From Gammaproteobacteria bacterium (GTDB taxonomy: Bacteria > Pseudomonadota > Gammaproteobacteria > Burkholderiales > Burkholderiaceae_B), in the NCBI GenBank assembly GCA_018812945.1, contig JAHJCM010000251.1, positions 1 to 32,828 of the forward strand: a stretch of 32,828 nt of DNA, given 5' to 3'. The translations under genes and the position numbers were made by a program. The notes under the pieces were generated by a model. It had not been told where the DNA came from. It ran no database searches and was given only the letters and a program-made list of their open reading frames with translations. Each line of letters opens with the position of its first letter. Position 1 is the stretch's first letter. This document shows, one piece after another, positions 535-32,828 of this stretch.

Positions 535-548
535 AATAACGATTACAG

Positions 549-588
549 TTCTCTGCGGTACACTTTAAAAAAAATACAACGCAGAGGA
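549..588 (+). promoter_or_regulatory. Inverted repeat covering the ribosome binding site of the acyl-CoA synthetase
   Basis: CTCTGCG (551-557) is the exact reverse complement of CGCAGAG (580-586). One G-U and one A-U pair extend the stem to 549-588. The downstream arm overlaps the Shine-Dalgarno GAGGAG (584-589). If the transcript starts upstream of 549, this hairpin could hide the ribosome binding site; if it starts inside the loop, the repeat may instead be a protein-binding site. Confidence 0.35.
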
Positions 589-598
589 GATGAAAACA

Positions 599-2245
599 AT
601 GTTGAAGCCAGGCCTGATGATGAAGCCGGAAATGCTGCTTTCTTCAATTTTGGTGCATGCCGAACGTTTTTACGGCTGGCAAGAAGTGGTGAGCCGCAGG
701 GTTGAAGGTGACCTGCACCGAATCACCTTCAAGGCCATGGCAGCACGTGCCAGGCAACTTGCCAATGCCTTGCATGCCTTGAATATTCAGCAAGGCGAGA
801 ACATTGCCACGATTGCGTGGAACAGTCATCGCCACATCGAAGTTTATTATGCCGTGGCGGGCATGGGGGCGATTACCCACACCTTGAACCCCAGATACAC
901 GCCTCAGCAGTTGATTTACATCATCAACCACGCGAAAGACTCCACCATCTTTTTCGACCTCACCTTTGCGCCCCTGATCAAGGCGATCGCTCCACATTGC
1001 CCCAGCGTTAAAAACTGGATTTTGTTGATTGATGAAAACAAAATGCCTGCAGAACCCCCAGTGGCTGGTTTGTTGAATTACGAAACTTTGCTCAAGGCGC
1101 AAAACGATGACTATGTGTGGCCCGAATTTGATGAAAATTCAGCCTGCACCCTGTGTTACACCTCCGGCACAACAGGCAACCCAAAAGGCATTCTGTATTC
1201 GCACCGGTCCACCATGTTGCACGCCATGATGTCCAATTGCGCGGATGCAATTGCGTTGACCCGAAAAGACACTTTGCTGCCCGTTGTGCCCATGTTCCAT
1301 GTGAATGCTTGGGGCTTGCCCTATGCCGCGTTGATGACCGGCTGCAAACTGGTCATGCCTGGTCCGCAACTGGATGGCCCTTCTGTTTACAGTTTGCTGG
1401 AAAGCGAGAAGGTAACCGTGGCCGCGGGCGTACCGACTATTTGGCTGGGTTTGATCAATCACATGAAGCAAAACGGGCTCACGTTCAGTACCTTGAAACG
1501 CTCGCTGGTGGGTGGCTCGGCCGTGCCCGTCAGTTTGATCAAAGAATTTGACGAAATGGGCGTGGAACTGATGCAAGGTTGGGGCAGCACAGAAATGTCA
1601 CCCTTGGGCACTGTTTCCAAACTGAGCGGTGATGAGCGCACTTTGCCCAAACAAGAGCAATACGAGATTGTGGCCAAGCAAGGGCGCACCATTTTTGGCG
1701 TGGACATGAAATTGCTCGCTGAGGACGGCACCGAGCTGCCTTGGGATTTTGAGCAAAGCGGCGAGTTGCATGTGCGTGGCCACTGGGTATTGCAGGAGTA
1801 CTACGGTGGTGATGGCGCAAAAGCCTTCAGCCACGATGCCACGGGCAAGCGTTGGTTTGCCACCGGGGATGTAGCCCGCATGGCGCCGGACGGCTTGATG
1901 CAAATTACTGATCGCACCAAAGACGTGATCAAGTCGGGTGGTGAGTGGATCAGTTCAATTGATCTGGAAAACATAGCCATGTCTCACCCGGCGGTGCTTC
2001 AGTCTGCAGTGATCGCCGTTCCCCATGAAAAGTGGAACGAGCGCCCCCTGCTGATTGTGGTGAAGCGGCCTGGTGCTGAAGTCAGCAAACAAGACATTCT
2101 GAATTTCTATGAAGGCCGTATTACCAAAATGCACATTCCCGACGATGTTGAGTTTGTAGACGCCATGCCGATTGGTGCAACAGGCAAGGTGCAGAAGTCA
2201 GAACTTCGTGAAAAGTTCAAAGGTCTGACATTCCGGTCAGTCTGA
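599..2245 (+). CDS. AMP-forming fatty acyl-CoA synthetase (AlkK/FadD-like)
   Basis: This 548-residue ANL-superfamily ligase would activate a fatty acid with ATP to acyl-AMP and then acyl-CoA. The P-loop [11 protein letters not shown] lies near residues 185-195. The motifs [20 protein letters not shown] (hinge region) and [12 protein letters not shown] follow in the expected order, and the C-terminal GKVQKSELR carries the presumed catalytic lysine. Length and motif spacing fit medium- and long-chain acyl-CoA ligases of the AlkK type; chain length cannot be read from the sequence. I chose the ATG at 599 rather than the in-frame ATG at 590, because the Shine-Dalgarno GAGGAG (584-589) abuts 590 but is 9 nt from 599. 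The gene converges on msrA with one base between stop codons and no terminator in between. Confidence 0.9.
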
Positions 2246-2246
2246 A

Positions 2247-2849
2247 TTACCTCGACGCCTTGGGTCCCCACAATTCCTCAAGGCGTTTGTCCCGACCACA
2301 GCCGTTGCGGTAATAGCCGTAGCGAATAGGATTTTTAATGTAGTAGTCCTGGTGGTATTCCTCAGCGGGATAAAATTTCACCACCGGTGCAACTTCCGTG
2401 TAAATGGTTTTGAATTTTCCAGTGGCCTGTAGTTTGGCTTTGCTGGCTTCAGCCACTTTCTTCTGTTCCTCATTCAGGTAATAAAATCCGCTTCGGTATT
2501 GGGTACCACTGTCGCAAAACTGGCGATTTTTCACGGTGGGGTCGATGGTTTTCCAGAAGTACTCTACCAACTGGCTGTAGCTTACTTTGGTGTCGTCGTA
2601 AGTCACCTCAACCACCTCGGTGTGGTCCGTGCGGCCGGCACTTACTACCTTGTAATCCGGGTCTTTGTATTGCCCACCGGCGTAGCCTGAAATTGTTTTC
2701 AACACGCCAGGTACTTTGTCAAAGTCTGCTTCGGTGCACCAAAAGCAGCCCCCGCCAAACACCGCGGTTTTTGTTTCAGCCTGTGCGCCTGTCGCAGCAA
2801 GCAAGCCCAAGGCTACGGCCAAGGTTGTTTTTAGTTTCATATATGTCAT
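2247..2849 (-). CDS. msrA: Exported peptide-methionine (S)-S-oxide reductase MsrA
   Basis: The 200-residue protein carries the MsrA catalytic motif GGCFWCTE (catalytic Cys35) after a Sec-type signal peptide (about residues 4-24, ending AQA). The region YAGGQYKDPDYKVVSAGRT is typical of the family. The C-terminal segment YYRNGCGRDKRLEELWG has the resolving-cysteine context. It reduces the S epimer of methionine sulfoxide in proteins, here predicted to act in the periplasm. The start at 2849 lies 4 bp after the msrB stop; a second ATG at 2840 would give nearly the same signal peptide. The frame extends further upstream, but that stretch overlaps msrB and is not credible. Confidence 0.93.
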   Translation of the reverse strand: MTYMKLKTTLAVALGLLAATGAQAETKTAVFGGGCFWCTEADFDKVPGVLKTISGYAGGQYKDPDYKVVSAGRTDHTEVVEVTYDDTKVSYSQLVEYFWKTIDPTVKNRQFCDSGTQYRSGFYYLNEEQKKVAEASKAKLQATGKFKTIYTEVAPVVKFYPAEEYHQDYYIKNPIRYGYYRNGCGRDKRLEELWGPKASR

Positions 2850-2853
2850 TTTT

Positions 2854-3357
2854 TTACGCCTTGCGCACTGCGGGTAATGTTTGACCTTCGGGAACGAAAG
2901 CCAATGCCAGGCCGTTGTTGCAATATCGCTTGCCGGTCGGGGCAGGGCCGTCGTCAAACACATGGCCCTGGTGGCCGCCACAATTGCTGCAGTGGTATTC
3001 GGTGCGCGGCAAAATCAATTTGTAATCGGTTTTGGTATTCAGTGCGCCTTTGTTGGCATCAAAAAAACTGGGCCAGCCTGTTCCACTGTCGTATTTATAC
3101 TGGGAGGGAAACAGAGGCAAATTGCATGCTGCGCACACATAGGTGCCTTTGCGTTTTTCGTCGTTCAAGGGGCTGGAGAATGGGCGTTCAGTGGCCTCTT
3201 TGAACAACACGTTGTACTGGTCTTTCTTGATGATTTTCAGCCATTCGGCTTCTGTTTTGTTCAGTTTGTTCATGCTGGCAATTGCACTCATGGGTTTTGT
3301 GATCATCAGTCCTGCGCCGAATGCGGCAAGTCCTGTTAACAGGGTACGACGTTGCAT
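2854..3357 (-). CDS. msrB: Exported (Tat-type leader) peptide-methionine (R)-S-oxide reductase MsrB
   Basis: The 167-residue protein shows the zinc-binding CxxC pairs CAAC and CSNC, the motif SGTGWPSFF, the GHVFDDGP segment and RYCNNGLALAF with the catalytic cysteine. It reduces methionine-R-sulfoxide. The N-terminus MQRRTLLTGLAAFGAGLM has a twin arginine and a hydrophobic stretch, suggesting Tat export of a folded zinc protein. I chose the ATG at 3357 because AAGGAA sits 8 nt upstream; that Shine-Dalgarno would be inside the coding sequence if the in-frame ATG at 3378 were used. It lies between the DUF1223 gene and msrA, so both sulfoxide epimers can be repaired from one transcript. Confidence 0.94.
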   Translation of the reverse strand: MQRRTLLTGLAAFGAGLMITKPMSAIASMNKLNKTEAEWLKIIKKDQYNVLFKEATERPFSSPLNDEKRKGTYVCAACNLPLFPSQYKYDSGTGWPSFFDANKGALNTKTDYKLILPRTEYHCSNCGGHQGHVFDDGPAPTGKRYCNNGLALAFVPEGQTLPAVRKA

Positions 3358-3393
3358 GCTTGTGTTTCCTTTTTTCAATCACTCAATCAATAT

Positions 3394-4203
3394 TCAACTG
3401 CATTGGCTCAAAGCCCTTGGTGCATTCAATGCTTGAAGAACGGTATTGGATTCATTGTTCTCAACAATAACGCCCAGTCCTACATTACTCTGGTTCCAGT
3501 CGCTTGGCAGCGTGTGCCTGAACACCTGTATTCTGGATCCGGGGGATACCTTTTTCGCATCGCTCAAGTGTCGAACCACCCGATCATGCTTCAATAACTC
3601 TCCCCGATTTTCTCCCGTTTTCACTTGTTGGCTTAAACCGTCTTCGTAGAAGGCCACGTATACGCGTCCACCGGAATAGCGCTCATCCAGCCATTCGGTT
3701 TTTACCTGAACTTCGACCTGATTGGCGGCCTTTCGTTCAAGCGAAACTTGCAGGCCCACGGGGGCTTTGTCTTGTTGCATCGCGGACAATCTCTGAGGAA
3801 TAAGCCCAGCCTGGCCCCACCGCCGAACTTCCCGGTTCGAGAATACATACTGCGGTGTGTAAATTTGACTTACATTTCCAGCCCGTTTGTGGGCGTATTG
3901 CCGATCGGTGAATTGCTTTTTGGAGTAGGGATCTTCCCAGCCAATGTAATTCCAGTAATCCACATGAAATGAAAGCGCCAGAATACTGCTTGATCGCTCC
4001 GGTGTAGTGAGTTGGCTGCTTAACCATCGGTCTGCAGGCGGACAGCTGCTACAGCCTTCTGAGGTGTAAAGCTCGGCGACAATCATTCGCTCAGCAGGGC
4101 TGGTCCAATTGCAGTTAACTTGCTGGCCCCAAACAGGTGCAGAGCCAAGGCCTAGTAGAGCCAAGCCACCGGTTCCTGCCATGTACTTCAAGCAATTTGT
4201 CAT
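3394..4203 (-). CDS. Exported DUF1223 thioredoxin-fold protein
   Basis: The 269-residue protein has an N-terminal signal peptide (hydrophobic core up to about residue 25, ending VWG). A redox-like CxxC motif follows in ELYTSEGCSSCPPADRWL (about residues 45-62), then LSFHVDYWNYIGWEDPYS, with YTPQYVF further on. These are hallmarks of DUF1223, a family assigned to the thioredoxin-like fold with no agreed function. The start is supported by GGAGGG four bases before the ATG. It is the first gene of a run with msrB (36 bp downstream) and msrA, so a role in the redox biology of the envelope is a reasonable inference, for example supplying electrons to the reductases. That role is not demonstrated. 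Confidence 0.85.
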   Translation of the reverse strand: MTNCLKYMAGTGGLALLGLGSAPVWGQQVNCNWTSPAERMIVAELYTSEGCSSCPPADRWLSSQLTTPERSSSILALSFHVDYWNYIGWEDPYSKKQFTDRQYAHKRAGNVSQIYTPQYVFSNREVRRWGQAGLIPQRLSAMQQDKAPVGLQVSLERKAANQVEVQVKTEWLDERYSGGRVYVAFYEDGLSQQVKTGENRGELLKHDRVVRHLSDAKKVSPGSRIQVFRHTLPSDWNQSNVGLGVIVENNESNTVLQALNAPRALSQCS

Positions 4204-21263: not shown

Positions 21264-21289
21264 GGAGCAGGTTCGGCGAATTTGGACAG
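21264..21289 (+). repeat. Left terminal inverted repeat of the IS3-family element
   Basis: This 26-bp sequence matches the reverse complement of 22237-22262 at 18 of 26 positions, with perfect blocks GGAGCAGGT at the outer end and GGACAG at the inner end. Length and inner GGACAG-like block resemble IS3-group ends. Confidence 0.75.
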
Positions 21290-21351
21290 GTGGATAAAAG
21301 ATGAGAGCTCTGCTTTTTGGGTCAATAATGTTGGTCAGGAAAGGAAAAATC

Positions 21352-21654
21352 ATGAGTCGCAGACCACGCAGATACCACTGGCCTGAGTTTAAAGCCGAGG
21401 TGGCGCTAGAGGCAGTTCTAGGCGAACAACCACTTGCCGAGCTTGCCCAGAAATACGATGACCACGCCACCTAAATTGCCCAGTGGAAAGCTGAATTGCT
21501 GCAAGCTGCTTCCACAGCATTTGGTGCCACTAAACCCGCCGAATCCACAGTCGTTGTGAAAGTTTTGCATGCAAGAATTGGCGAGCTGACATCGGAGAAT
21601 GATTTTTTAGAAAGTGCGCTCATCAAGGTGGGTTTGCTGAGCTCAAAGCGATGA
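21352..21654 (+). pseudogene. IS3-family transposase orfA, nonsense mutation
   Basis: Reading from the ATG at 21352 gives MSRRPRRYHWPEFKAEVALE, then LAELAQKYDDHAT, then a TAA at 21472-21474. There the family expects a glutamine (DDHATQIAQWK), which is consistent with a CAA to TAA change. The same frame then continues IAQWKAELLQAASTAFG and ends at 21654 with a leucine-zipper-like tail. This is an inactive helix-turn-helix subunit. Confidence 0.85.
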
Positions 21655-22248
21655 TTGATACAAACTACGAATTTTCGATGAGCGAACAGGCCAAGATTCT
21701 TCGCATCGCCCGATCTGAGTGCTGTGCATATCACCTACCTTCCGATGAAACGCGGCTTTCTGTAACTGCTGTGCCTAGTCATCTATTGGTGCAGCAGGAA
21801 AGTGCTCAGTTGGAGGCTGTCGAACACCATGCATCTTGATTTCTGTGTCGAAGCGGTTCGAGAAGCGATCACCAAATACTGCAAGCACGAGATCGTCAAA
21901 CCCGATCAGGGCACTCAATTCACCAGTTTGGAGTTCACTGAAATGCTAAAGGGCCACGATATTCAAATCAGCATGGATGGCAAAGGTTGTTGGCGCGACA
22001 ACGTGGTGATTGAGCGATTCTGGCGCACAGTGAAATACGAGGAGGTTTACCTTCGGGCCTACGAAACAACCTCGGAGGCAAGAAAATATTTGCACGAGTA
22101 CAGTGCGTTTTACAATACCGGTCGAGGCCACCAGGCTTTGGAGTACAAAACCTCAGGCGAGGTGTATTTCATCAACAAAGTGCGGCATTGGTCGCTTAAC
22201 CCGCAGGACTGGATCTTTATTATAAATCCACGAAAACTGTCCGACTAA
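21651..22248 (+). pseudogene. IS3-family transposase orfB, internally deleted integrase core
   Basis: The start (MIDTNYEFSMSEQAKILRIARSE) overlaps the orfA stop. After about residue 25 the frame jumps. From 21730 the sequence reads ITYLPMKRGFL, a stop (21763), and then WCSRKVLSWRLSNTM in the same frame. About 100 residues are missing between these parts. The remaining rve domain contains PDQGTQFTS and NVVIERFWRTVKYEEVYL, holding the second Asp and the Glu of the DDE triad. The first Asp position appears as His (HITYLPM). Confidence 0.85.
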
Positions 22249-22262
22249 ACAAGACCTGCTCC
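22237..22262 (-). repeat. Right terminal inverted repeat of the IS3-family element
   Basis: This is the partner of the left repeat; the orfB stop lies inside it, as is common in compact insertion sequences. Confidence 0.75.
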
Positions 22263-22304
22263 GTTCTACTTTCAAGCCCGTTTTAATACTTGCATATCAA
22301 ATTA

Positions 22305-22333
22305 TGGACATTTGGTTGGTCAACCAATATAAT
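22305..22333 (+). promoter_or_regulatory. Sigma-70-like promoter with palindromic operator in the spacer
   Basis: TGGACA (22305-22310) and TATAAT (22328-22333) are separated by exactly 17 bp. The spacer contains TTGGTTGGTCAACCAA (22312-22327), with 7-bp perfect arms around GT. A repressor bound there would block RNA polymerase. It drives the four-gene operon starting at 22393. A second small inverted repeat ATCATT/AATGAT follows at 22338-22353. Confidence 0.75.
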
Positions 22334-22392
22334 TCCAATCATTATCAAATGATGTTCCGATCAAATAGTATAAGCAGCCTAAGGAGTTCAGC

Positions 22393-23262
22393 ATGAAAGC
22401 CGTACCTATCCGACCTCGCAAGGTTTCCTTTGACGTTTCGGCAGTGCAGCGTCACTGGAATGGTGGTGATCCAGTGCTAACTAGGTTTTTCGATGCTTTG
22501 TCGGTGCATTTTCCCGAGGGCGAGCGCTTTTTTATCCAATCAGTGCGCCACTTTCAGGATCAGGTGAACGAATCTCGTCTTCGAGAGGATATTCGTCACT
22601 TTATTCGTCAGGAAGGGCAACATGGCATCATTCACGATCGCTTTAACGATGTAATGGCCGGGCAAGGGATAGATGTCGAGCGGGTCACCACAAATCTGCG
22701 GCGTTTTATTCGAACTTCTCAAAAGTACCTTCCGAAAAAATATCAGTTGGCGATGACCGCTGCATTCGAGCATTTCACCGCCACGCTGGGTGAGGCCATG
22801 CTACGGGAAGACACTGACATGCTTCGCGAGGCCGATCCGGTTATGCGGGCGATGTTTCTCTGGCATGGTGTGGAGGAGGTTGAACACAAGGCAGTGGCCT
22901 ATGATCTTTATCAGACCGTAGCTGGAGGTGGATACATGATGCGCGTCTCTGCGCTAGTGACAGCAATGTTGATAATGCATGTGGTGGTGGCGCCTGTCTT
23001 TATCAATATGCTGCGTCTGGATGGTGTCTTGACAAAACCCGGCGTGGTAGCGCGTGGACTAAATCGGTTGTACGGGCGTAGAGGAGTTGTCACTTGTATG
23101 ATGCCAGAATTTCTTGCGTGGTTTCGACCCGGGTTTCATCCTTGGGAAACCGGTATGCCAGAGAAGGTGGCCGCTTGGCTGGAAGAATATGGTGAACATG
23201 GTGATCCAATGCGCGCGTCCGCAGCAGTCTACGGTGACCTCGCTGTCAAGGAGGTCGTGTGA
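22393..23262 (+). CDS. PF10118-type 'metal-dependent hydrolase' with diiron-like ligand pattern
   Basis: The 289-residue, largely helical protein begins with RPRKVSFDV and contains HWNGGDPVLTRFFDALS. It matches the family usually annotated as predicted metal-dependent hydrolase. Visible potential ligands are Glu44 (PEGERFF), Glu74-x-x-His77 (QEGQH), Glu126 (AFEHF) and Glu162-x-x-His165 (EEVEH). This E/ExxH/E/ExxH order, with gaps of about 30 and 36 residues, is that of ferritin-like diiron proteins. A hydrophobic segment lies at about residues 184-205. AAGGAG six bases before the ATG supports the start. It is the first gene of an operon with the BtrH-like protein and two thioesterases. The reaction is unknown; oxidation of a lipid substrate is an inference. 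Confidence 0.8.
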   Translation: MKAVPIRPRKVSFDVSAVQRHWNGGDPVLTRFFDALSVHFPEGERFFIQSVRHFQDQVNESRLREDIRHFIRQEGQHGIIHDRFNDVMAGQGIDVERVTTNLRRFIRTSQKYLPKKYQLAMTAAFEHFTATLGEAMLREDTDMLREADPVMRAMFLWHGVEEVEHKAVAYDLYQTVAGGGYMMRVSALVTAMLIMHVVVAPVFINMLRLDGVLTKPGVVARGLNRLYGRRGVVTCMMPEFLAWFRPGFHPWETGMPEKVAAWLEEYGEHGDPMRASAAVYGDLAVKEVV

Positions 23263-24282
23263 ATGAGCATGATCAAGCCGTCCTCGGGTACTGCAAAGTC
23301 ATCCTCAGAGTTTCATAGCCATACACCTGGGCGGCATTGTGGTAGTTCTGCGATTCGGGATTTGCTGGAGTTTCATGGTCTGACTATGACTGAGGCCTGT
23401 TGCTTTGGTCTTGGCGCTGGGCTTGGCATTACGTATGTTGAGGTGCCAGGGTCGTCAACGCCATTTATCGTTCATGTTCGCTCCATGGGATTCGAGGAGA
23501 AGGTATTCTCGACTTTGGGCGTGCCATTTGCCTGGGATGTTTTCGAGGACAAAACGCGGGCGAGCGACGCCCTCAATGTAGCTTTGCTGAGCGGGCGTCC
23601 AGCATTGTTACTCACGGACATCTTTCACCTCCCTTATTTCAACAGTAAAACCCACTTTCCGGGGCATGCTATCGTTGCCTGGCAAATTGATCCGCTGCGT
23701 AGTCAGGTTTTCGTCAGTGACACCGAGCGACCTGGTCTAATACCAGTGCCTCTAGAAAAGCTTGCTGACTCCCGCTTCTCCACTTCGGAACCCTTTGTAC
23801 ATTATGGCAACATGTATGCTCCGTTGCGTATTGACGCAGAAGTATCCCCTTTGAGCATTCGACGGGCTATCTTTGACAATGCTTCCAGCCTGATGCGGGG
23901 TAATCGCCATAGCGGGCTGGCGGCTCTGAATACTTGGATTGCAGAGTTGGCGCGCTGGGCGGCTGATCCGAACTGGCGTTGGAACCTGAGATTTGCTTAT
24001 CAGGTGATCGAGAAGAGAGGCACGGGTGGTTCAGGCTTTCGCACTATTTACTCGGAGTTCCTGGAGGAGGCGCAGATTCATTTACCTCAGGTGGAGCGTG
24101 GCGGGTTGGTTCGGAAAATGCGTGCTTCGGCAGCAGCGTGGTCAGATTTGGCAGCAGTGCTTAAAGCGGGTTCCGAGGCTTCTGTATTTCCCCATGAGAA
24201 AATTGAAGCTGCGATAAATCATGTTCTCATTAATGAGCATTGCTACGCAGAGAGCGCGCTCTCCATTTTTCCAGAATCTTGA
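23263..24282 (+). CDS. BtrH N-terminal-domain protein (predicted acyltransferase/C39-like fold)
   Basis: The 339-residue protein opens with TPGRHCGSSAIRDLLEFHGL, EACCFGLGAGLGITY and later FPGHAIVAW and VFVSDTERPG. This matches the BtrH N-terminal family, named after the butirosin side-chain acyltransferase, followed by a C-terminal DUF4872-like helical part. Cys26, His135 and Asp153 lie in contexts resembling the Cys/His/Asp sites of C39-like cysteine enzymes; that comparison is mine. There is no signal peptide. The ATG follows the upstream stop directly, with AAGGAGG (23248-23254) eight bases before it. With thioesterases downstream, transfer or hydrolysis of an acyl thioester is plausible. 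Confidence 0.8.
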   Translation: MSMIKPSSGTAKSSSEFHSHTPGRHCGSSAIRDLLEFHGLTMTEACCFGLGAGLGITYVEVPGSSTPFIVHVRSMGFEEKVFSTLGVPFAWDVFEDKTRASDALNVALLSGRPALLLTDIFHLPYFNSKTHFPGHAIVAWQIDPLRSQVFVSDTERPGLIPVPLEKLADSRFSTSEPFVHYGNMYAPLRIDAEVSPLSIRRAIFDNASSLMRGNRHSGLAALNTWIAELARWAADPNWRWNLRFAYQVIEKRGTGGSGFRTIYSEFLEEAQIHLPQVERGGLVRKMRASAAAWSDLAAVLKAGSEASVFPHEKIEAAINHVLINEHCYAESALSIFPES

Positions 24283-24348
24283 CCAAGTAATGTGGCCGGC
24301 TTTGCTCAATGGCCTGAACAAGAGTAGGTATCTTGGAGGTAACGCTGA

Positions 24349-24795
24349 ATGATTGATCGATATCTTGAAATGGCAAAGAGTTTTTTCGGTGCTTCACACC
24401 CACTGTTCAATACACTTGGTGTGGAAGTAGAGGAAATTTGCGGGGGTAAGGCTGTGATGACCATCTGTCACCAGAAGTTTTTGACAGGTCGCAACGGTAG
24501 TATGCATCGTGGCGTCATCGTGACTCTGCTTGATACAAATTGTGGTTTGGCAATATTCTCCAAACTCGGTGATATGAGGGCGATTGCTACAATAGATCTG
24601 CGAGTCGACTTCATCGCAGAGGCTGTGTCGGGAGACTCAGTAAGCAGTGAGGTGGAGTGCTATGCGATCAAGAATGATATTGCTTATGTTCGTGGCCGAG
24701 CAATAAATAATCGAGATGATCGGCTTTTGGCGACGGTGTCTGGGTCATTTGCTGTGGGTACACTTGGTCCAGGCTTTGATTCTTCTATGCAATAA
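24349..24795 (+). CDS. PaaI-type hotdog thioesterase
   Basis: The 148-residue hotdog-fold protein has the signature GSMHRGVIVTLLDTNCGLAIFS (His53, Asp62), where HRG replaces the usual HGG. DLRVDFIAEAVSGD is the typical central strand region. It probably hydrolyses an acyl-CoA. GGAGG nine bases before the ATG supports the start. It lies 66 bp after the BtrH-like gene and 13 bp before a second hotdog gene, so the two may work as a heteromer or on different chain lengths. Confidence 0.87.
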   Translation: MIDRYLEMAKSFFGASHPLFNTLGVEVEEICGGKAVMTICHQKFLTGRNGSMHRGVIVTLLDTNCGLAIFSKLGDMRAIATIDLRVDFIAEAVSGDSVSSEVECYAIKNDIAYVRGRAINNRDDRLLATVSGSFAVGTLGPGFDSSMQ

Positions 24796-24808
24796 AAGGC
24801 GGGCATTA

Positions 24809-25255
24809 ATGGCTGATGTAGGTACAAAGCGTGTCGGTAATGACAGAGAAGACAAAGTTGCATTGTTAAATCCTGCACAAGCAAAACTGCTGGAAGACAA
24901 TCCATTTGTAGGGTTTTTAGGAATGAAGCTGGTTAATTCGGCTGATGACGTAAGTTATCAGCTTTCATTCCGCGATCAGCATATGGGCAACCCTTTATTG
25001 CGTACCTTCCATGGTGGAATCTTGGCCAGTTTTGGTGAGATCAGCGCTGCTTTGCATGTTATAGGGATTCTTGATCTTAATAGCGAGCCTCAGTGCCAAA
25101 GTATGACCTTCGACTACTTGCGCCCGGCATTCGCCGGAACCATATGTGCGGTGCCTCAAGTCATCCGATCAGGCAAACGATTCATCATCACATCAGTAGA
25201 AATCTATCAAAATCAGACATTGGTGGCGATGGGCCGATTTATTTATACCCGATAG
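24809..25255 (+). CDS. Second hotdog-fold thioesterase-like protein
   Basis: The 148-residue protein has the hotdog signature RTFHGGILASFGEISAALHV (HGG at 68-70, Glu77 at the acidic position) and SMTFDYLRPAFAGT as the following strand. It belongs to the 4HBT/PaaI superfamily but is clearly diverged from its neighbour. The ATG at 24809 has AAAGG nine bases upstream, overlapping the previous stop; the frame extends upstream but would overlap the first thioesterase. It ends the operon. Confidence 0.85.
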   Translation: MADVGTKRVGNDREDKVALLNPAQAKLLEDNPFVGFLGMKLVNSADDVSYQLSFRDQHMGNPLLRTFHGGILASFGEISAALHVIGILDLNSEPQCQSMTFDYLRPAFAGTICAVPQVIRSGKRFIITSVEIYQNQTLVAMGRFIYTR

Positions 25256-25338
25256 CTCGGCCCTGAAGAGAAAATTCTATCGACCGTGTTGAATTGCTCC
25301 CCAATCCGCAGCTTCTGTGTGGTTTGCGGCTGAGTAGT

Positions 25339-25363
25339 CTGAGGCGGTGATCTTGGGCCTCAG
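25339..25363. terminator. Possible bidirectional terminator between thioesterase operon and AraC gene
   Basis: CTGAGGC (25339-25345) and GCCTCAG (25357-25363) form a perfect 7-bp stem with an 11-nt loop in the 113-bp gap between two convergent genes. There is no clear T tract on either side, so it may only be an RNA-stabilising hairpin. Confidence 0.35.
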
Positions 25364-25368
25364 CGTTA

Positions 25369-26412
25369 TCAAAGTGAGTTGGCAATACGCCTGTAATCAT
25401 CGGGGGGTTGGCCAAACCAGCGCTTGAATGCACGCCTGAAGTTGGCGCTGTCGTGGTAGTTCAGCAGCACGGCAATTTCTTCGATCGATAGAGTAGTTTC
25501 ACCCAAATAACTAGCCGCTTGATTGGAGAGAATTTCCTCACGAATTTTTCGAAAACTGGATTGCTCTTTCTTCAGCTTCCTCGCAAGGGTGCGTTTGCTC
25601 ATTAAAAGAGTAGCGGCGGCTTCTTCCTCACTTAGTGTGCCGGGCGGACGGGATAACATCATTTTCTTAAGGCGGTTCTGATAGCTCGATGTCTGCGCTT
25701 GAAGTTGCTCTAGCAAGACCTCACAATGCTGCAAAGCAAGTTGATAGCTTTCATGATTGGCTGAAGCATTCGGCTCAAGACACAACGCCATCGGCAATCT
25801 GAGTGTTAACTGTTCGCGGCAGAAATCAATTCGTCCGGAAAGATACTCTGCATAGATCGCTTGGTATTCAGGCGCTACATGGGTAAATCCAATCTCTGCC
25901 TCTTCCAAAGCACGGCCTAAAATAAATTCACCGAAATTAAGTAGCACAGTGACAATCAACTCTGCCACGCAACGAAGCAGATCGTTGTCCAGTTGTATCT
26001 TGAAGGTCACCCTACATTCAAGATTATCCTCAGTCTCATACAAACGCAGTTCGATAACACCAACACGAGTGGGCAGGAAAGTGTGTATGGCCTGAAATGC
26101 ACTGAGCAGGTTCGGGCTGCTGGAGGCAGCAAAGCCCATCGTGCCATGAGTTGCCGGTGTCAAGCGTCTGCCCAGCCGCAGTCCGAATCCCGGTCGGCCC
26201 GACAACGCCAGTGCGTTGCGTAGAATCTGTATCTGCTGAGCCGACGTGATCAGACCGTTATCACTCAACAGCTGAGCGGCCCTAAGACCGGTACCTTGTA
26301 GTAATTCCGGCAATTGCCTAGCTGTTAGCCCGAGCTCACGCGCTATAAGCCGTGAGTAATTGGACGGAATATTCTTCACCGAGTCGACACTTGTTTTGGT
26401 GTGATGTGTCAT
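25369..26412 (-). CDS. AraC-family transcriptional regulator of the CYP153 operon (predicted)
   Basis: The 347-residue protein has an N-terminal arabinose-binding-like regulatory domain (GRPGFGLRLGRRLTPATHGTMGFAASSSPNL) and a C-terminal double helix-turn-helix: EEEAAATLLMSKRTLARKLKKE, then LSIEEIAVLLNYHDSANFRRAFKRWFG. AraC regulators of this architecture often sit beside alkane-oxidation genes. It is divergent from the ferredoxin-P450 operon, with a tandem direct repeat in the shared gap. The ATG at 26412 has only a weak ribosome binding site. Confidence 0.9.
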   Translation of the reverse strand: MTHHTKTSVDSVKNIPSNYSRLIARELGLTARQLPELLQGTGLRAAQLLSDNGLITSAQQIQILRNALALSGRPGFGLRLGRRLTPATHGTMGFAASSSPNLLSAFQAIHTFLPTRVGVIELRLYETEDNLECRVTFKIQLDNDLLRCVAELIVTVLLNFGEFILGRALEEAEIGFTHVAPEYQAIYAEYLSGRIDFCREQLTLRLPMALCLEPNASANHESYQLALQHCEVLLEQLQAQTSSYQNRLKKMMLSRPPGTLSEEEAAATLLMSKRTLARKLKKEQSSFRKIREEILSNQAASYLGETTLSIEEIAVLLNYHDSANFRRAFKRWFGQPPDDYRRIANSL

Positions 26413-26444
26413 TGAGAGGGCTCTTGTAAAATTAAATTGTCTCC

Positions 26445-26476
26445 AAATGACCTCTATTTTGTCAAGAAATGACCTC
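26445..26476. promoter_or_regulatory. Tandem 10-bp direct repeat, candidate AraC-protein binding site
   Basis: AAATGACCTC occurs at 26445-26454 and again at 26467-26476, a 22-bp period, or two helical turns. This is the arrangement usually bound by AraC-family dimers. The second copy abuts a possible promoter for the ferredoxin gene (TCCTCT at 26475-26480, 17 bp, TAATAT at 26498-26503) that has a good -10 and a poor -35, as expected for an activator-dependent promoter. Confidence 0.7.
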
Positions 26477-26533
26477 CTCTACATGAGGATGCATCAATAA
26501 TATGATCACTCGTAGAGATAAAGGAGAAAAGCG

Positions 26534-26854
26534 TTGGGGAAGATTATTTTTGTTGAGCATAACAGCACCGAGCATGTCGCCAAGCTTGATGTGGGCTCTA
26601 CTTTGATGCAAATTGCCGTCACCAATGCTGTGCCAGGCATTGACGGGGATTGCGGCGGAGAGTGCGCGTGCGGCACCTGCCACATTGTTGTTGACGGTCA
26701 ATGGTTCAATAGAACCGGTGAGATCGCGGATGTCGAAGAGCAAATGCTATCCATGACACCGGAGCGGACTGACACTTCGCGTCTTGGTTGCCAGGTCAAG
26801 GTTACTGAAGAAATGGATGGCATGATTGTTTACTTGCCAGAATTCCAGATGTGA
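26534..26854 (+). CDS. Adrenodoxin-type 2Fe-2S ferredoxin, TTG start
   Basis: The 106-residue protein has cluster ligands Cys40, Cys46, Cys49 and Cys86 in CGGECACGTC...LGCQV, the C-x5-C-x2-C-xn-C pattern of putidaredoxin/adrenodoxin ferredoxins. An extra cysteine (Cys44) lies inside the loop. It would carry electrons from the reductase at 29975-31216 to the CYP153. The start codon is TTG, placed 7 nt after AAGGAG (26521-26526), and no ATG lies nearby. It is the first gene of the hydroxylase operon. Confidence 0.92.
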   Translation: MGKIIFVEHNSTEHVAKLDVGSTLMQIAVTNAVPGIDGDCGGECACGTCHIVVDGQWFNRTGEIADVEEQMLSMTPERTDTSRLGCQVKVTEEMDGMIVYLPEFQM

Positions 26855-26871
26855 AAAAAGTGGAGCGATTT

Positions 26872-27009
26872 ATGACAACGAAATCAAGCATGAGTGGCAC
26901 GATTCAGACAAAGGTAATTAATGCTACGGCCAAAATCGTGCCCATGAACTTGCAGATTAGGGCGCTAAAAGTATTGATGAAGGCAAAGAGAAAAACTATT
27001 GGGGCCTAA
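26872..27009 (+). pseudogene. Displaced N-terminus of the CYP153 gene (frameshifted)
   Basis: A 45-codon open frame with GGAG six bases before its ATG encodes a basic peptide ending VLMKAKRKTIGA and stops 7 bp before the first P450 ATG. The P450 frame at the same place reads GPKTPMLHFVESP. Removing one G from GGGG (27001-27004) fuses the two into one 471-codon gene. From memory, the Marinobacter CYP153A33 N-terminus has a similar stretch (INAT..., VPM..QI, AKRKT.GP) running into the conserved body, with about 470 residues in all. I therefore read this as the true start of the P450. Confidence 0.75.
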
Positions 27010-27016
27010 AACCCCT

Positions 27017-28288
27017 ATGCTCCATTTTGTCGAATCCCCATTGCCTGACGTTACTACGCTTTCCATTGAGGAGATTGACGCCAGCAATCCGTTTCTTTAC
27101 CGACAAGGCAAGTGCTCAGCCTATTTCAAGCGGCTGCGCGACGAGGCTCCAGTTCATTACCAGAAAAATAGCCCGTTCGGGCCATACTGGTCGATAACAC
27201 GCTTCGATGATATTTTATATGTGGATAAGAATCATCAGTTGTTTTCCTCGGAGCCTCAAATCGTTCTGGGAGATCCCCCGGATGGTTTGTCCGTCGAAAT
27301 GTTTATTGCCATGGATCCGCCTCGGCATGATAAGCAGCGACGGGCAGTTCAAGGCGTCGTGGCGCCTCAAAATCTGAGAGAAATAGAGGGGCTGATTCGT
27401 AGCCGTACCGGCGAGGTGCTTGACAGCCTTCCGCTGAATGAGCCTTTCAACTGGGTGCCCAAGGTATCGAAAGAACTAACCGCTAGGATGCTCGCAACCT
27501 TACTAGATTTTCCCTACGAAGAACGCCATAAGCTTGTGGGCTGGTCAGATCGATTATCGGGTGCGTCATCGGCAACAGGTGGTGAATCTACCAATGAAGA
27601 TGTCATGTTTGACGATGCAGCGGATATGGCGTGGTCCTTCTCAACCCTTTGGCGCAACAAAGAAGCTGATCGAGCAGCCGGCGAAAAGGTTGGCTTCGAC
27701 CTGATTAGCATGATGCAGAGTAACGAGGACACCAAAGACCTGATTAATCGTCCGATGGAGTTTATTGGTAACCTAGCGCTACTCATCGTCGGTGGCAATG
27801 ACACCACACGAAATTCTATGAGTGGTGGCGTGCTCGCCCTAAATCGGTTTCCCGAAGAATTCGTTAAGCTTAAGGCAAATCCGGGGCTGATTCCTAATAT
27901 GGTTTCGGAAATCATCCGTTGGCAAACCCCGCTTGCGCATATGCGTCGCGTTGCTACACAGGATGTCGAGCTGCATGGTCAGACCATCAAGAAGGGTGAC
28001 CGTGTTGTGATGTGGTATGCATCAGGAAATCGTGACGAACGAAAATTTGAAAATCCCGATCAATTCATCATCGACCGTCATGATGCAAGAAATCATATGT
28101 CGTTTGGCTATGGCGTTCATCGTTGTATGGGTAATCGCCTTGCTGAACTTCAACTGCGCATTCTTTGGGAGGAGTTGCTGAAGCGTTTCGATGACATCGA
28201 AGTCGTTGGCGAGCCGGAGCTTGTTCAATCAAACTTTGTACGCGGCTATTCAAAGCTGATGGTGAAGTTGACGGAGAAGAGTAGATGA
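27017..28288 (+). CDS. cyp153A: Cytochrome P450 CYP153 family (alkane/fatty-acid terminal hydroxylase), 5' part frameshifted
   Basis: The 423-residue open frame carries the body of a CYP153. FIAMDPPRHD lies near residue 100, LLIVGGNDTTRNSMSGG is the I-helix oxygen-binding region, SEIIRWQTPLAHMRR contains ExxR, and FGYGVHRCMGNRLAE contains the heme-ligand cysteine (Cys370 from this ATG). These are diagnostic for CYP153, which hydroxylates terminal carbons of alkanes, alcohols or fatty acids. A TTG at 26999 could extend it by six residues, but neither start has a proper ribosome binding site, and the family N-terminus is found in another frame just upstream. As written the protein lacks about 42 residues. 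The stop overlaps the GMC start (ATGA). Confidence 0.93.
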   Translation: MLHFVESPLPDVTTLSIEEIDASNPFLYRQGKCSAYFKRLRDEAPVHYQKNSPFGPYWSITRFDDILYVDKNHQLFSSEPQIVLGDPPDGLSVEMFIAMDPPRHDKQRRAVQGVVAPQNLREIEGLIRSRTGEVLDSLPLNEPFNWVPKVSKELTARMLATLLDFPYEERHKLVGWSDRLSGASSATGGESTNEDVMFDDAADMAWSFSTLWRNKEADRAAGEKVGFDLISMMQSNEDTKDLINRPMEFIGNLALLIVGGNDTTRNSMSGGVLALNRFPEEFVKLKANPGLIPNMVSEIIRWQTPLAHMRRVATQDVELHGQTIKKGDRVVMWYASGNRDERKFENPDQFIIDRHDARNHMSFGYGVHRCMGNRLAELQLRILWEELLKRFDDIEVVGEPELVQSNFVRGYSKLMVKLTEKSR

Positions 28289-29940
28289 GCCATCAGGGCG
28301 GGCGAGCGTCAGAGCAGTTTGACTACGTGGTGGTTGGGGCTGGCTCGGCAGGTTGTGCGGTCGCTAACCGGCTGTCCGAGAGTGGTCTTTATTCCGTACT
28401 TTTGCTCGAGGCCGGACCAGAGAGTCGTCATAACCCCTTCGTGAATATACCTCTGGGATTCTTGCAACTCATGTTCAGCCGTCGTTACAACTGGCAGTTC
28501 AAGACTGAGCCGCAGCGGCATATGTATGGTCGTTCGTTGTTCCAGCCTCGGGGTAAGATGCTTGGTGGGTCGAGCGGCATCAACGCTCAGGTTTACATCC
28601 GTGGTCATGCTCAAGATTATGATGAATGGGAGAAACTGGGTTGTCAGGGATGGTCATACCAAGAGGTGCTGCCTTATTTCACGAAGTCGGAGAATTTCGA
28701 GCCGCCATTGAATCCGCTTGATGTGCCGTTCCATGGTCGGGGAGGTCCACTCAATGTTGCTGAACGCCGCTATACCAATCCCCTTAGTCTGGTGTTTGTT
28801 GAGTCTGCAAAGCAGGCTGGACACCGCCACAACAGCGACTTTAATGGCCATCATCAGGAGGGTGTAGGTTTCTACTACGCCTATCAGAAAAATGGTGCGC
28901 GATGCAGCAATGCACGCGCCTATCTTGAGCCGGCGTCAGGACGCCCGAACCTGACTGTACGAAGTGGTTCACATGTCACCCGAGTACTGCTCGAAGGGAC
29001 ACGTGCTGTCGGTGTGGAGTATCGGAGCGGGACGGGCCTAGTACAGATTCGAGCAGCGCGCGAGGTCGTACTCTGCGGTGGCGCGTTCAATTCGCCGCAT
29101 CTGCTGATGTTATCCGGAATCGGTCCGCGTGAGGAACTTGACAGGCACGGCATTCAGGTGCGTCACGCGTTGGAAGGGGTGGGGCAGAATCTTCAGGACC
29201 ATATCGACGTGTTTGTTCGTGCCCGGGCACGCACCCGTCTGGGTATTTCGATGCATCCAAGCTACTGGCTCAAGGGATTATGGGCCGTGCTGCAGTATCT
29301 GGCTGGTCGGCGCGGGGTGCTGTCCAGCAACGGCGCCGAGGCTGGCGGGTTTATCCGCTCCCGGCCGCAAGAGCCGATTCCCGATCTGCAGCTACACTTC
29401 GGGCCCATGCTGTACGCTAATCACGGACGGGACATTAAGACCGCAATGAGTGGTTATGGCTACATAGTCATGATCTATGGGCTTCGGCCTTTGTCACGGG
29501 GCCGAGTCGGTCTGCACAGCGCTGATCCCCATGCGGCACCGCTGATCGATCCCGCCTATTTGTCCGACCCCGCGGATGTTGAGCGACTTGTTCGCGGGGT
29601 GCGAATGGTGCGCGAGATTCTGGTACAGCCGGCCTTTGCGCCGCACCATGATGTCGAGGTTTCCCCCGGAGAGGCGCTGTTGTCGGACCAAGACCTCGCA
29701 GACTGGGTGCGGCGCAGCGCTGAATCGGCATATCACCCGGTCGGTACATGCAAAATGGGCGTCGATTCGCTGGCAGTGGTGGACCCGCGTTTGCGAGTGC
29801 ATGGCGTGCAGTGTCTGCGGGTGATCGACGCGTCGATCATGCCGACCTTGGTGGGTGGCAATACCAATCAACCGGCGACCATGATCGGCGAGAAGGGCGC
29901 CGCGATGATGCTTGAGGATGCCGCGACATCCGGCGCCTGA
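28285..29940 (+). CDS. alkJ: GMC oxidoreductase (AlkJ-like alcohol dehydrogenase)
   Basis: The 551-residue FAD enzyme has the dinucleotide fold DYVVVGAGSAGCAVANRLSE (about 13-32). The GMC signatures are GKMLGGSSGINAQVYIRG and GGAFNSPHLLMLSGIGP, and the C-terminal HPVGTCKMG and GGNTNQPATMIGEKGA carry the active-site His/Asn. It belongs to the choline dehydrogenase/AlkJ branch and would oxidise the primary alcohol made by CYP153 to the aldehyde, probably passing electrons to the membrane quinone pool. The start overlaps the P450 stop by 4 nt. GC content rises sharply within this gene compared with the upstream P450 region. Confidence 0.9.
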   Translation: MSHQGGRASEQFDYVVVGAGSAGCAVANRLSESGLYSVLLLEAGPESRHNPFVNIPLGFLQLMFSRRYNWQFKTEPQRHMYGRSLFQPRGKMLGGSSGINAQVYIRGHAQDYDEWEKLGCQGWSYQEVLPYFTKSENFEPPLNPLDVPFHGRGGPLNVAERRYTNPLSLVFVESAKQAGHRHNSDFNGHHQEGVGFYYAYQKNGARCSNARAYLEPASGRPNLTVRSGSHVTRVLLEGTRAVGVEYRSGTGLVQIRAAREVVLCGGAFNSPHLLMLSGIGPREELDRHGIQVRHALEGVGQNLQDHIDVFVRARARTRLGISMHPSYWLKGLWAVLQYLAGRRGVLSSNGAEAGGFIRSRPQEPIPDLQLHFGPMLYANHGRDIKTAMSGYGYIVMIYGLRPLSRGRVGLHSADPHAAPLIDPAYLSDPADVERLVRGVRMVREILVQPAFAPHHDVEVSPGEALLSDQDLADWVRRSAESAYHPVGTCKMGVDSLAVVDPRLRVHGVQCLRVIDASIMPTLVGGNTNQPATMIGEKGAAMMLEDAATSGA

Positions 29941-29974
29941 AAAAACTTTCCCATAAATCAGTCTGAGAGAGGCC

Positions 29975-31216
29975 ATGGCGAATAAATCGCAAGAGGTGAC
30001 AGTCATCGTTGGGAGTGGGCATGCAGCAGGTGCGCTTTTGGCCGCCTTGCTGCGAGGCAGGTACCAGCATGAGGTGGTGCTGATCGGTGAAGAACCACAT
30101 CCACCGTACCAGCGACCACCTCTGTCGAAGAATTATCTGGCCGGTGAGGTTGAGCAGGAATCACTGTACCTGAAGCCACGCTCGGTATACGAAAATGCAG
30201 GTTATCAATTGCGGCTCGGTGTGCGTGTCGATCAGATCGACCGAGACAGCAAGACGGTCAGATTATCCGATCACAGTAAGATCAAATACGACCGCCTTGT
30301 CCTGGCCACTGGCTCACAGGTTCGGCGCCTGACGTCGCCGGGGGCCAAGCTGAAGGGCATTTATTATTTGCATGACATGGCTGACGCGGATGCCCTGCGT
30401 GAGGTGCTCGTTCCGGGCAAACGTCTGGTTATAGTCGGCGGCGGTTTCGTCGGCCTTGAGGTCGCCGCCAGCGCAGTCAAGAAGGGTGTCCATGTTACGG
30501 TGCTGGAAGCTGCCGGGCGTCTGATGCAGCGGGTTACCGGGCCGGAGATGTCCGCTTTTTTTTATGCCAGACATCGTGATGCCGGGGTGGATGTACGACT
30601 GGATACAGGGGTGACCGGGTTCGAAACCGGGGATCACGGGTTTGTTGCCGGGGTCCGGTTGGCCAATGGCGACACGGTGTCGGCGGATATCGTGCTTGTT
30701 TCGATTGGCGTCATACCAGATACCGCACTGGCAGAGGCCGCCGGCCTGACCTGCGATGGCGGTATTCTCGTCGATGAGTTTACTCGCACCGATGACCCCG
30801 CCATTCTGGCGATCGGAGACTGCACACGCCATCGCAATCTTTTTTTTGAAGACAGACTACGGCTGGAGTCGGTAGCGAATGCTGTTGATCAGGCGCGTAC
30901 TGCCGCAGCAGTATTGATGGGTGAGGACAAGCCCTACGATAGCGTGCCGTGGTTCTGGTCGAATCAGTATGACATTCGTCTGCAGATGGTCGGCTTGTCA
31001 CAAGGCCATGATCAGCGTGTCATGCATGGTAGCCCGGCGGATAAGGGATTTGTGGTGTTCTACTTGCGCGACGGCTGCGTCATCGCGGTAGACGCGGTAA
31101 ATTTGCCAATCGCTTTTATGGTCGGAAAGCAGCTGGTTCAGCGACGTATGATTTTGAATACTGAACTATTGAGCAATCCGGATGCGGATCTAACATTGCT
31201 CCTAATAGCTACCTAA
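29975..31216 (+). CDS. FAD-dependent ferredoxin reductase (putidaredoxin reductase/AlkT-like)
   Basis: The 413-residue protein has an FAD motif, VTVIVGSGHAAGALLAALL, near the N-terminus. The central motif LVLATGSQVRRL is followed by an NAD(P) motif, LVIVGGGFVGLEVAASAVKKG (about 150-170), and the second FAD site LAIGDCTRH. It transfers electrons from NAD(P)H to the ferredoxin encoded at the operon start, completing a three-component class I P450 system. It follows the GMC gene by 34 bp; GAGAGG lies very close to its ATG, so the start is likely but not certain. Confidence 0.92.
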   Translation: MANKSQEVTVIVGSGHAAGALLAALLRGRYQHEVVLIGEEPHPPYQRPPLSKNYLAGEVEQESLYLKPRSVYENAGYQLRLGVRVDQIDRDSKTVRLSDHSKIKYDRLVLATGSQVRRLTSPGAKLKGIYYLHDMADADALREVLVPGKRLVIVGGGFVGLEVAASAVKKGVHVTVLEAAGRLMQRVTGPEMSAFFYARHRDAGVDVRLDTGVTGFETGDHGFVAGVRLANGDTVSADIVLVSIGVIPDTALAEAAGLTCDGGILVDEFTRTDDPAILAIGDCTRHRNLFFEDRLRLESVANAVDQARTAAAVLMGEDKPYDSVPWFWSNQYDIRLQMVGLSQGHDQRVMHGSPADKGFVVFYLRDGCVIAVDAVNLPIAFMVGKQLVQRRMILNTELLSNPDADLTLLLIAT

Positions 31217-31534
31217 CGAAATTTTGAACCGCTCTGAGATTTGTGAGACTCCGTTGTTTGACACAATGGTGCCATCATCAGCAAACCCGAATTCAAATTC
31301 GCCCCTGAGCTTTGCAGGCGAGCAGTTCGCATGACAAGGGAAGTCTGCAAAGATTGGTTCAATTGCCATCGACTGATGGTGCCTCTGATAGACTTTTCTC
31401 CCGACGCAGATTTAAGTACGATCAACGAATCGGTTAGTAGGCGGAATATACCTGCACTTATGCAAATTGGCCTCAACGAAAACCGGGACTGTTCAACATT
31501 TCAGTAAATAATATGTTAACTAGTAAGACAACAT
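31217..31534. other. Gene-poor spacer with possible transposase remnant
   Basis: No convincing gene lies in these 318 bp. The plus-strand frame from about 31277 reads KPEFKFAPELCRRAVRMTREV, which resembles the N-terminus of IS3-family orfA proteins (FSPE.RERAVRMV.E). The likeness ends after about 25 codons. The 88-codon minus-strand open frame across the same region shows no family features. This may be the right border scar of the imported block. Confidence 0.35.
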
Positions 31535-32828
31535 ATGAATGTAAGCCGAATCCCAATCCGAATTGTACAAGTGTTAACGGTTGTTTTCTGTTTCCTACTG
31601 TTCGCCTGCACCTCCGATTCCAATGACAGCGAAAACCCCGCTAGCACCGGGGGTGTAACTGCATCAAGTGAGTCGACGAGAACCGTCTTGATGTTGGGCA
31701 CCCGGTCAAGTCAGTCCAGACCGGTGCAAGTGATTGAGGCAAATGAGGGTCAATGGACTAGTTATGAGCGCGCCGAAGATTTCCCATCAACCGTAACTTT
31801 GCCCAAAGGCTTTATTCGCATGCGCGATGGCATTGAACTGGCCTACACAGTCACTTTGCCTGCAAACGAATCTGCTCAACCCATTCCCGCTGAAACGTAT
31901 CCCGCCATTTTGATACAAACCGCTTACAACAAGGCGGCGGGTGCATTTGTGCCTGCGATCGGGGGAGCTGATCCATTTATGGTGAAGCGAGGTTACGCCA
32001 CAGTCGTTGTTGATGTGAGAGGTACGGGTAATTCACAGGGCGTTTGGGATGCGTTCGGGGAGAAAGAGCAGGGTGATTATTCCGAGGTTGTAGATTGGGT
32101 GATTTCTCAACCGTGGAGCAACCAAACAGTGGGTGTGTACGGAGTCTCTTATTTGGGTATCAGCGCGATTTTAACGGCTGCGAAAAATCACCCTGCGGTT
32201 AAAGCTGCGTTTCCAATAGTGCCGATTGGTGATGGTTACCGAGACATTGTGTTCACTGGAGGACAAGTCAACCCGACCTTTATACCGCTATGGATGGGGT
32301 TGGTGACCGGGCTTGGCGTGGTGCCGTTTGATGCTTTACAAACGGACCCGGCCCGGGGGATTGAGTTGTTGGTGTCGCACCTATTGAATGGGGTTGTTCA
32401 ATTTCAGGTGCCAACAATTCTCAAGGCGCTTTTGGGCGAAAATGAAACAGCATTTGATGGTGAGTTTTGGAAAACCCGTTCTCCGCTTGAACAGGCTGAC
32501 AACATCAAGGTGCCCACTTTCATCGTGGGCGGCCTTCGTGACCTCTTCCAACGAAGCGAGCCCATGTGGTTTGAGCAGTTAAAGGGCCAAACCACAGCCA
32601 AACTATTGATAGGGCCTTGGACGCATATTGAATCTGCCGGAATTCCAAGCGATGGGTTGCCTCGTGACGGGGTTCCTACTTTGCAACAAATTCAGTTGAT
32701 GTGGTTTGATCAGTACTTAAAAGGCATGGATGTAGGCGCGGACAAGTTGCCCAACGTGACACAGTATGTGCTGGGGCATGAAAAATATGTGACAGCCAGT
32801 GATTGGCCTCATCCAGGTGTCCAGGCCA
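31535..32828 (+). CDS. CocE/NonD (S15) family hydrolase, lipoprotein, 3' end outside window
   Basis: An open frame of 431 codons runs to the window edge without a stop. The N-terminus VLTVVFCFLLFACTS has a lipobox (LFAC, Cys25). GFIRMRDGIELAYTVTLP opens the hydrolase domain. VVVDVRGTGNSQG and YGVSYLGIS contain the oxyanion region and the nucleophile Ser205, GGLRDLFQ probably contains the acid, and GPWTHIE the histidine. The family includes X-Pro dipeptidyl peptidases, cocaine esterase and acylase-type enzymes; the substrate here is unknown. The ATG at 31535 lacks a strong ribosome binding site. Confidence 0.88.
   Translation, partial: MNVSRIPIRIVQVLTVVFCFLLFACTSDSNDSENPASTGGVTASSESTRTVLMLGTRSSQSRPVQVIEANEGQWTSYERAEDFPSTVTLPKGFIRMRDGIELAYTVTLPANESAQPIPAETYPAILIQTAYNKAAGAFVPAIGGADPFMVKRGYATVVVDVRGTGNSQGVWDAFGEKEQGDYSEVVDWVISQPWSNQTVGVYGVSYLGISAILTAAKNHPAVKAAFPIVPIGDGYRDIVFTGGQVNPTFIPLWMGLVTGLGVVPFDALQTDPARGIELLVSHLLNGVVQFQVPTILKALLGENETAFDGEFWKTRSPLEQADNIKVPTFIVGGLRDLFQRSEPMWFEQLKGQTTAKLLIGPWTHIESAGIPSDGLPRDGVPTLQQIQLMWFDQYLKGMDVGADKLPNVTQYVLGHEKYVTASDWPHPGVQA

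What the first reader, a model, noticed from the sequence alone, without database searches (positions are those of the whole stretch)
26872..27030. CYP153 gene split by one extra G in a GGGG run
Directly visible: a 45-codon frame with its own ribosome binding site ends 7 bp before the P450 ATG. The P450 ORF lacks a ribosome binding site and starts at a point where family members already have about 40 residues. Deleting one G at 27001-27004 joins KAKRKTIG to PKTPMLHFVE and gives a 471-residue protein. From memory, Marinobacter CYP153A33 is about 470 residues and has a closely similar junction (AKRKT.GP). The cause may be a homopolymer sequencing error, a real inactivating or attenuating frameshift, or, less likely, ribosomal slippage. 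An automatic annotation would give a truncated P450 and miss the small frame.
Basis: partly seen in the sequence, partly recalled or inferred. Interest (0 to 1): 0.8.

Follow-up and report, generated by a model that had tools for sequence, protein, structure and literature searches.

The report
One-base frameshift in a CYP153 gene
An ordinary bacterial alkane-oxidising P450 gene carries one extra G that cuts off its first 44 residues, either because the draft genome sequence is slightly wrong or because of a very recent mutation.

Summary
A 45-codon frame (26872-27009) and the P450 frame (27017-28288) are two halves of one CYP153A gene, put out of frame by four G at 27001-27004. A single-contig genome of the same genus (G008) has three G there. 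It differs at only two positions from 21374 to 32828, one of them this G, and reads as one 471-residue protein. Of 80 homologues kept, 34 carry the N-terminal arm in frame, none in another frame, and 46 have no detectable arm. So it is neither a separate small gene nor a conserved programmed frameshift.

The cause is undecided; a consensus error is slightly favoured. In this 253-contig draft, a carboxypeptidase gene whose frame is open in the 15 other genus genomes is also broken, by one base beside GGGGGG. A real, very recent mutation is nearly as likely.

Loss of function should not be assumed. The product from ATG 27017 keeps all 82 family-invariant columns. Its 423 residues match the 411-424 residues present in crystal chains of armed relatives, and reinitiation 7 nt after the stop could make it.

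In passing: the operon lies on a 13-15 kb island shared almost letter for letter by two species about 94% identical elsewhere.

The parts
26534..26854 (+). 2Fe-2S ferredoxin, first gene of the operon (TTG start)
   Evidence: Pfam PF00111, E 2.7e-8; identical to G008
26872..27009 (+). 45-codon frame = N-terminal arm of CYP153A, cut off by the frameshift
   Evidence: translation; the same residues begin the 471-aa protein of G008; arm in frame in 34 of 80 homologues
27001..27004 (+). run of four G; the neighbouring genome G008 has three
26999..28288 (+). CYP153A P450 frame (TTG 26999; likelier start ATG 27017, 423 aa)
   Evidence: NCBIfam P450 models, none over its curated cut-off; keeps 82 of 82 columns invariant in 78 relatives
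28285..29940 (+). GMC-type alcohol dehydrogenase; start overlaps the P450 stop by 4 nt (ATGA)
   Evidence: NCBIfam PRK02106, 619.4 bits against a cut-off of 605; sequence
29975..31216 (+). ferredoxin reductase
   Evidence: Pfam PF07992 and PF14759
25369..26412 (-). divergent AraC-type regulator
   Evidence: Pfam PF12625 and PF12833
21374..32828 (.). window part of the island shared almost letter for letter with G008
   Evidence: two differences in this stretch against a median of 93.9% identity over 164 ORFs; same-genus genomes with the flanks only about 1.8 kb apart

Best explanation
This is one ordinary CYP153A alkane/fatty-acid hydroxylase gene in a ferredoxin - P450 - GMC alcohol dehydrogenase - ferredoxin reductase operon. 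A single extra G in a short G run puts its first 44 codons out of frame with the catalytic domain. The frameshift relative to an intact allele is shown (about 0.97). The cause is inferred: an indel error in the consensus of a fragmented draft (probably metagenome-derived) is slightly more likely than a real mutation. If it is an error, the organism makes the normal 471-residue enzyme.
For: G008 has the intact gene with otherwise identical DNA over 4,287 bp. Of 80 homologues, 34 carry the arm in frame, 0 in another frame, and 46 have no detectable arm. Of 16 genus genomes searched (G000 included), only G000 and G008 match the junction pattern, with 4 and 3 G. G000 is a 253-contig draft. Control: of 1,095 ORFs in 1.28 Mb of G008, 190 had a hit in the 587 kb of G000 held, 164 were comparable (168 kb) and 12 had a net frame break. 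Seven of the 12 read open in G000 from a start near or after the change, and two hit stops in G000 and look like shadow ORFs, not verified further. One is an ORF with stops in 14 of the 15 genomes other than G008. The last two are inside genes: this one and a carboxypeptidase gene (PF02113), one base short beside GGGGGG and open in the 15 other genus genomes. The ORF overlaps the end of a gene on the other strand, and there the change is a one-base loss in an A run at its last codons.
Against: One other clear in-gene break in 164 pairs is a low rate that natural pseudogenes could also give. A run of four G is short for a homopolymer error. No other ORF of the window showed a net frame break against G008. 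The carboxypeptidase break, about 40 residues before the end, may itself be real. ORFs were taken from G008, so breaks in G008 were not counted and the two genomes are not compared evenly.
Confidence: 0.55

Rival explanations
1. A real, very recent one-G insertion. The arm is made as a 45-residue peptide. Ribosomes that stop at TAA 27007-27009 reinitiate at ATG 27017, 7 nt on, and make a 423-residue armless CYP153A that may keep activity. Output is probably reduced, with lower coupled translation of the alcohol dehydrogenase, whose start overlaps the P450 stop.
For: The armless product keeps 82 of 82 family-invariant columns, and 11 of 78 relatives begin at or after its start. Solved CYP153s 3rwl, 7ant, 6hqd, 6hqg and 5h1z align only from query residue 61-65. 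Armed 8b2p and 5fyf were 470-residue constructs whose chains hold 411-422 residues. A 7-nt gap lies in the -8 to +10 nt range taken as predictive of termination-reinitiation (PMC10666635, passages).
Against: All 21 homologues of 79% identity or more among the 80 kept have the arm. Pairing of -4.7 before 27017 is unremarkable (26% of background sites reach -4), and the extra G gives a more stable local fold (-9.2 against -5.1 kcal/mol, no shuffle control). No read or protein evidence.
Confidence: 0.4
2. Programmed or leaky ribosomal slippage on GGG-G joins the two frames and makes some full-length enzyme.
For: GGGG would let a glycine tRNA re-pair one base on (inference). The P450 frame is +1 to the small frame.
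Against: No relative shows the site: G008 reads straight through, and 0 of 80 homologues have the arm in another frame. No stimulatory element was sought beyond one short fold.
Confidence: 0.03
3. The 45-codon frame is a separate small gene, or the P450 natively starts at 27017.
For: Distant CYP153s lack the arm (46 of 80 without a detectable arm).
Against: The 45 residues are homologous to the start of in-frame CYP153A proteins (34 of 80), and the near-identical G008 gene is continuous.
Confidence: 0.01

Closest known systems
CYP153A of Marinobacter aquaeolei (5fyf, 5fyg, 8hgd; the name CYP153A33 is recalled)
   Same: Match of the intact G008 allele over residues 9-469, with the N-terminal arm and a similar junction (AKRKTIGP / AKRKTFGP)
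   Different: Continuous frame; no extra G
CYP153A71 (8b2p)
   Same: Best solved relative, aligned 1-469 of 471; the crystal chain holds 422 residues
   Different: Continuous frame
Armless CYP153s: 3rwl (CYP153A7), 7ant, 6hqd, 6hqg, 5h1z (CYP153D17)
   Same: Sequences begin near where the frameshifted product would begin
   Different: More distant (47-56% identity to the L033 model); armless by descent, not by a frameshift (inference)

Membership tests
CYP153 (cytochrome P450 alkane hydroxylases) | high similarity to known CYP153 over the P450 domain | tested here: met
   G008 allele matches 8b2p at 2.4e-268 and 5fyf at 1.4e-259
CYP153 (cytochrome P450 alkane hydroxylases) | heme-cysteine loop and I-helix residues intact | tested here: met
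   82 of 82 columns invariant in 78 relatives kept, including C418 and G307-T312 of the first row
CYP153 (cytochrome P450 alkane hydroxylases) | ferredoxin and ferredoxin reductase partners nearby | tested here: met
   26534-26854 and 29975-31216
CYP153A, armed subgroup | N-terminal arm in frame with the P450 domain | tested here: not met
   arm is in another frame in this record; in frame in G008
Programmed frameshift | shift site conserved in relatives | tested here: not met
   0 of 80 homologues and not G008
CYP153 (cytochrome P450 alkane hydroxylases) | hydroxylase activity | not testable with these tools
   none

The most novel reading that the evidence does not exclude
A natural, very recent armless form of an armed CYP153A: one inserted base splits off the flexible N-terminal arm as a leader peptide, and termination-reinitiation makes a working catalytic domain alone, which would test what the arm is for.
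Probability: 0.15. Interest if true: 0.35.

Novelty: new member of a known kind. Interest (0 to 1): 0.14.

Why it matters
Mostly for annotation: an automatic caller would report a short P450 and drop or misname a 45-codon frame, when the gene is probably an ordinary CYP153A. If the G is real, G000 and G008 are a nearly isogenic pair at this locus for asking what the CYP153A arm does and how one base changes a whole operon's translation.

Tried and rejected
A first structure model on 17 sequences was poor (mean pLDDT 51.1) and was not used. A second on 78 sequences was good (89.4). Both are models of L033, the closest collection relative, not of the window protein. The second shows two arm helices (3-19, 25-42) at lower confidence than most of the core. 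The 78 rows are 78 of the 80 homologues: L067 and L105 fell out at the filter on length and unknown bases.

The idea that the arm is an amphipathic membrane helix was not supported: 720 of 5,000 shuffles reach the hydrophobic moment of its second helix.

The viral collection scan gave no relative, and plasmids gave no megablast match to 21300-32828. A search for RNA polymerase beta (PF00562) in G000 found none and was not pursued. FA_desaturase-family proteins (PF00487, the family taken here, from recall, to include AlkB) occur seven times in G000 and in G008. They were not sorted, so whether another alkane hydroxylase covers for this one is unknown.

Papers. Seen as listings only: CYP153A + N-terminal + truncat + alkane (7), Limnobacter + CYP153 (2), CYP153A33 + crystal structure + N-terminal (0), CYP153A71 + structure (0), frameshift/homopolymer/MAG/indel error (1), CYP153A33 + N-terminal (1), CYP153 + frameshift (1). 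One search listed 15 papers; two were searched for passages (PMC5187867; PMC3815936), which said nothing on the arm. One search found 157 papers on translational coupling and listed 8; passages of two were read (PMC10666635; PMC6728339). In these listings and passages I saw nothing on this gene or on removing the arm.

The first pass of the frame-break control dismissed nine breaks by position alone. As the CYP153 break lies at nt 154 of its own ORF, that was too weak, so each was looked at: seven read open in G000 from a start near or after the change, and two (855030, 908971) hit stops in G000 and were taken as shadow ORFs.

Full report
Observation. The window is contig 149 of a 253-contig draft (G000, 3.09 Mb, completeness 91.75, contamination 3.15). 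The P450 frame mechanically opens at TTG 26999, six codons before ATG 27017.

It is one gene. Another genome of the genus, G008 (one contig, 3.30 Mb), has this DNA with three G. Over 4,287 bp around the gene blastn gives no mismatch and one gap, that G. From 21374 to the window end only two positions differ, 24248 (an A to V change) and the G. In G008 the frame is continuous and encodes 471 residues, aligned from residue 1 with 8b2p and from residue 9 with the Marinobacter enzyme 5fyf. Five further genus genomes (G001, G005, G006, G012, G013) hold a 79-80% identical homologue with the arm in frame; the other genus genomes gave no match or only a weak, distant one. Of the best 80 homologues in the genome collection (593 confirmed among capped candidates, 80 kept), 34 carry the arm in frame (score above the maximum of 800 shuffles) and none has it in another frame. 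The remaining 46 have no detectable arm; they include a few whose weak arm fell below the threshold, such as L054 and L059. Among the 16 genus genomes searched, the junction pattern is found in G000 and G008 alone. A separate small gene and a conserved programmed frameshift are therefore out.

Error or mutation. As a control, ORFs of 1.28 Mb of G008 were aligned to 61 G000 contigs or parts (587 kb). Of 1,095 ORFs, 190 had a hit and 164 were at least 90% covered at 80% identity or more (168 kb, median identity 93.9%). Twelve had a net frame break. Each was then looked at. Seven read open in G000 from a start near or after the change, and two hit stops in G000 and look like shadow ORFs. One (C9) is an ORF with stops in 14 of the 15 genomes other than G008, hence not a gene; but the change falls in an A run at the last codons of the gene on the other strand (hisI by recall). 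Two lie inside genes: the CYP153 gene, and a carboxypeptidase gene (PF02113) whose frame is open in the 15 other genus genomes and broken in G000, one base short beside GGGGGG. These three one-base changes sit in or beside homopolymers, which is what consensus errors do. But the count is small, natural pseudogenes are not excluded, and breaks in G008 itself would not be counted. I lean slightly to an error (0.55) over a real mutation (0.4).

If real, it need not be dead. The ATG 27017 product (423 aa) keeps 82 of 82 columns invariant in 78 relatives, and 11 of these 78 begin at or after its start (starts chosen mechanically). The CYP153 entries 3rwl, 7ant, 6hqd, 6hqg and 5h1z align only from query residue 61-65. 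The armed enzymes were crystallised as 470-480 residue constructs, but the chains hold 411-424 residues, aligned over almost their whole length with the model. That the missing residues are mainly the arm is my inference, since the table gives no residue ranges. The stop-to-start distance of 7 nt lies in the range (-8 to +10 nt) that PMC10666635 took as predictive of termination-reinitiation (passages). The part played by the SD varies by gene pair (PMC6728339, passages). Against this, the pairing before 27017 is unremarkable and the extra G stabilises a local fold. The alcohol dehydrogenase start overlaps the P450 stop by 4 nt, so weak P450 translation would probably lower it too (inference).

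Setting. The operon lies in a block almost identical in G000 and G008, although outside it the two are about 93-95% identical to the left and less to the right. The next G000 contig (C27) continues the block: its first 170 bases hold 10 differences, bases 169-3456 none, and identity falls away after about 3900. In G008 the two flanks are about 15.3 kb apart. In G005, G006, G007, G012 and G013 the same flanks are about 1.8 kb apart; G003, G009 and G010 show a similar gap with partial flanks, and G001 a gap of about 1 kb. The block is thus an island of roughly 13-15 kb, with a degenerate transposase (integrase core) at its left edge. The frameshift, real or not, most simply post-dates the sharing of the island.

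Verdict. The feature is an ordinary CYP153A gene with one extra base, of low interest unless reads prove the base real.

Noticed in passing
window 21374-32828, continuing in G000 contig C27 (L147) to about 3457-3900: The CYP153 operon sits on an island of about 13-15 kb, nearly letter-identical in two species that are about 94% identical elsewhere (median over 164 ORFs). Five genus genomes have only about 1.8 kb between the same flanks, so it looks recently shared or inserted.
   Followed up: partly
window 21351-22248: Degenerate transposase (an orfA-like start with an early stop, then an integrase-core frame at 21802-22248) at the left edge of the island; a 108-bp piece at 21265-21372 recurs at 84-89% identity in G001, G009, G012 and elsewhere in G000.
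   Followed up: partly
end of window (32828) / L147 1-170: G000 contigs 149 and 27 overlap by 15 bp, and the first 170 bases of contig 27 hold 10 differences from G008 amid identical DNA: a possible sign of strain mixture or a repeat at the assembly break.
   Followed up: no
L164 (G000 contig C44) 1556-3025: Carboxypeptidase (PF02113) gene whose frame is open in 15 other genus genomes is out of frame in G000 by one base beside GGGGGG, about 40 residues before its end.
   Followed up: partly
window 27113-27115: Cysteine in the P450 (YRQGKCSAYF) where 50 of 78 relatives have tryptophan and none has cysteine; the same in G008.
   Followed up: no
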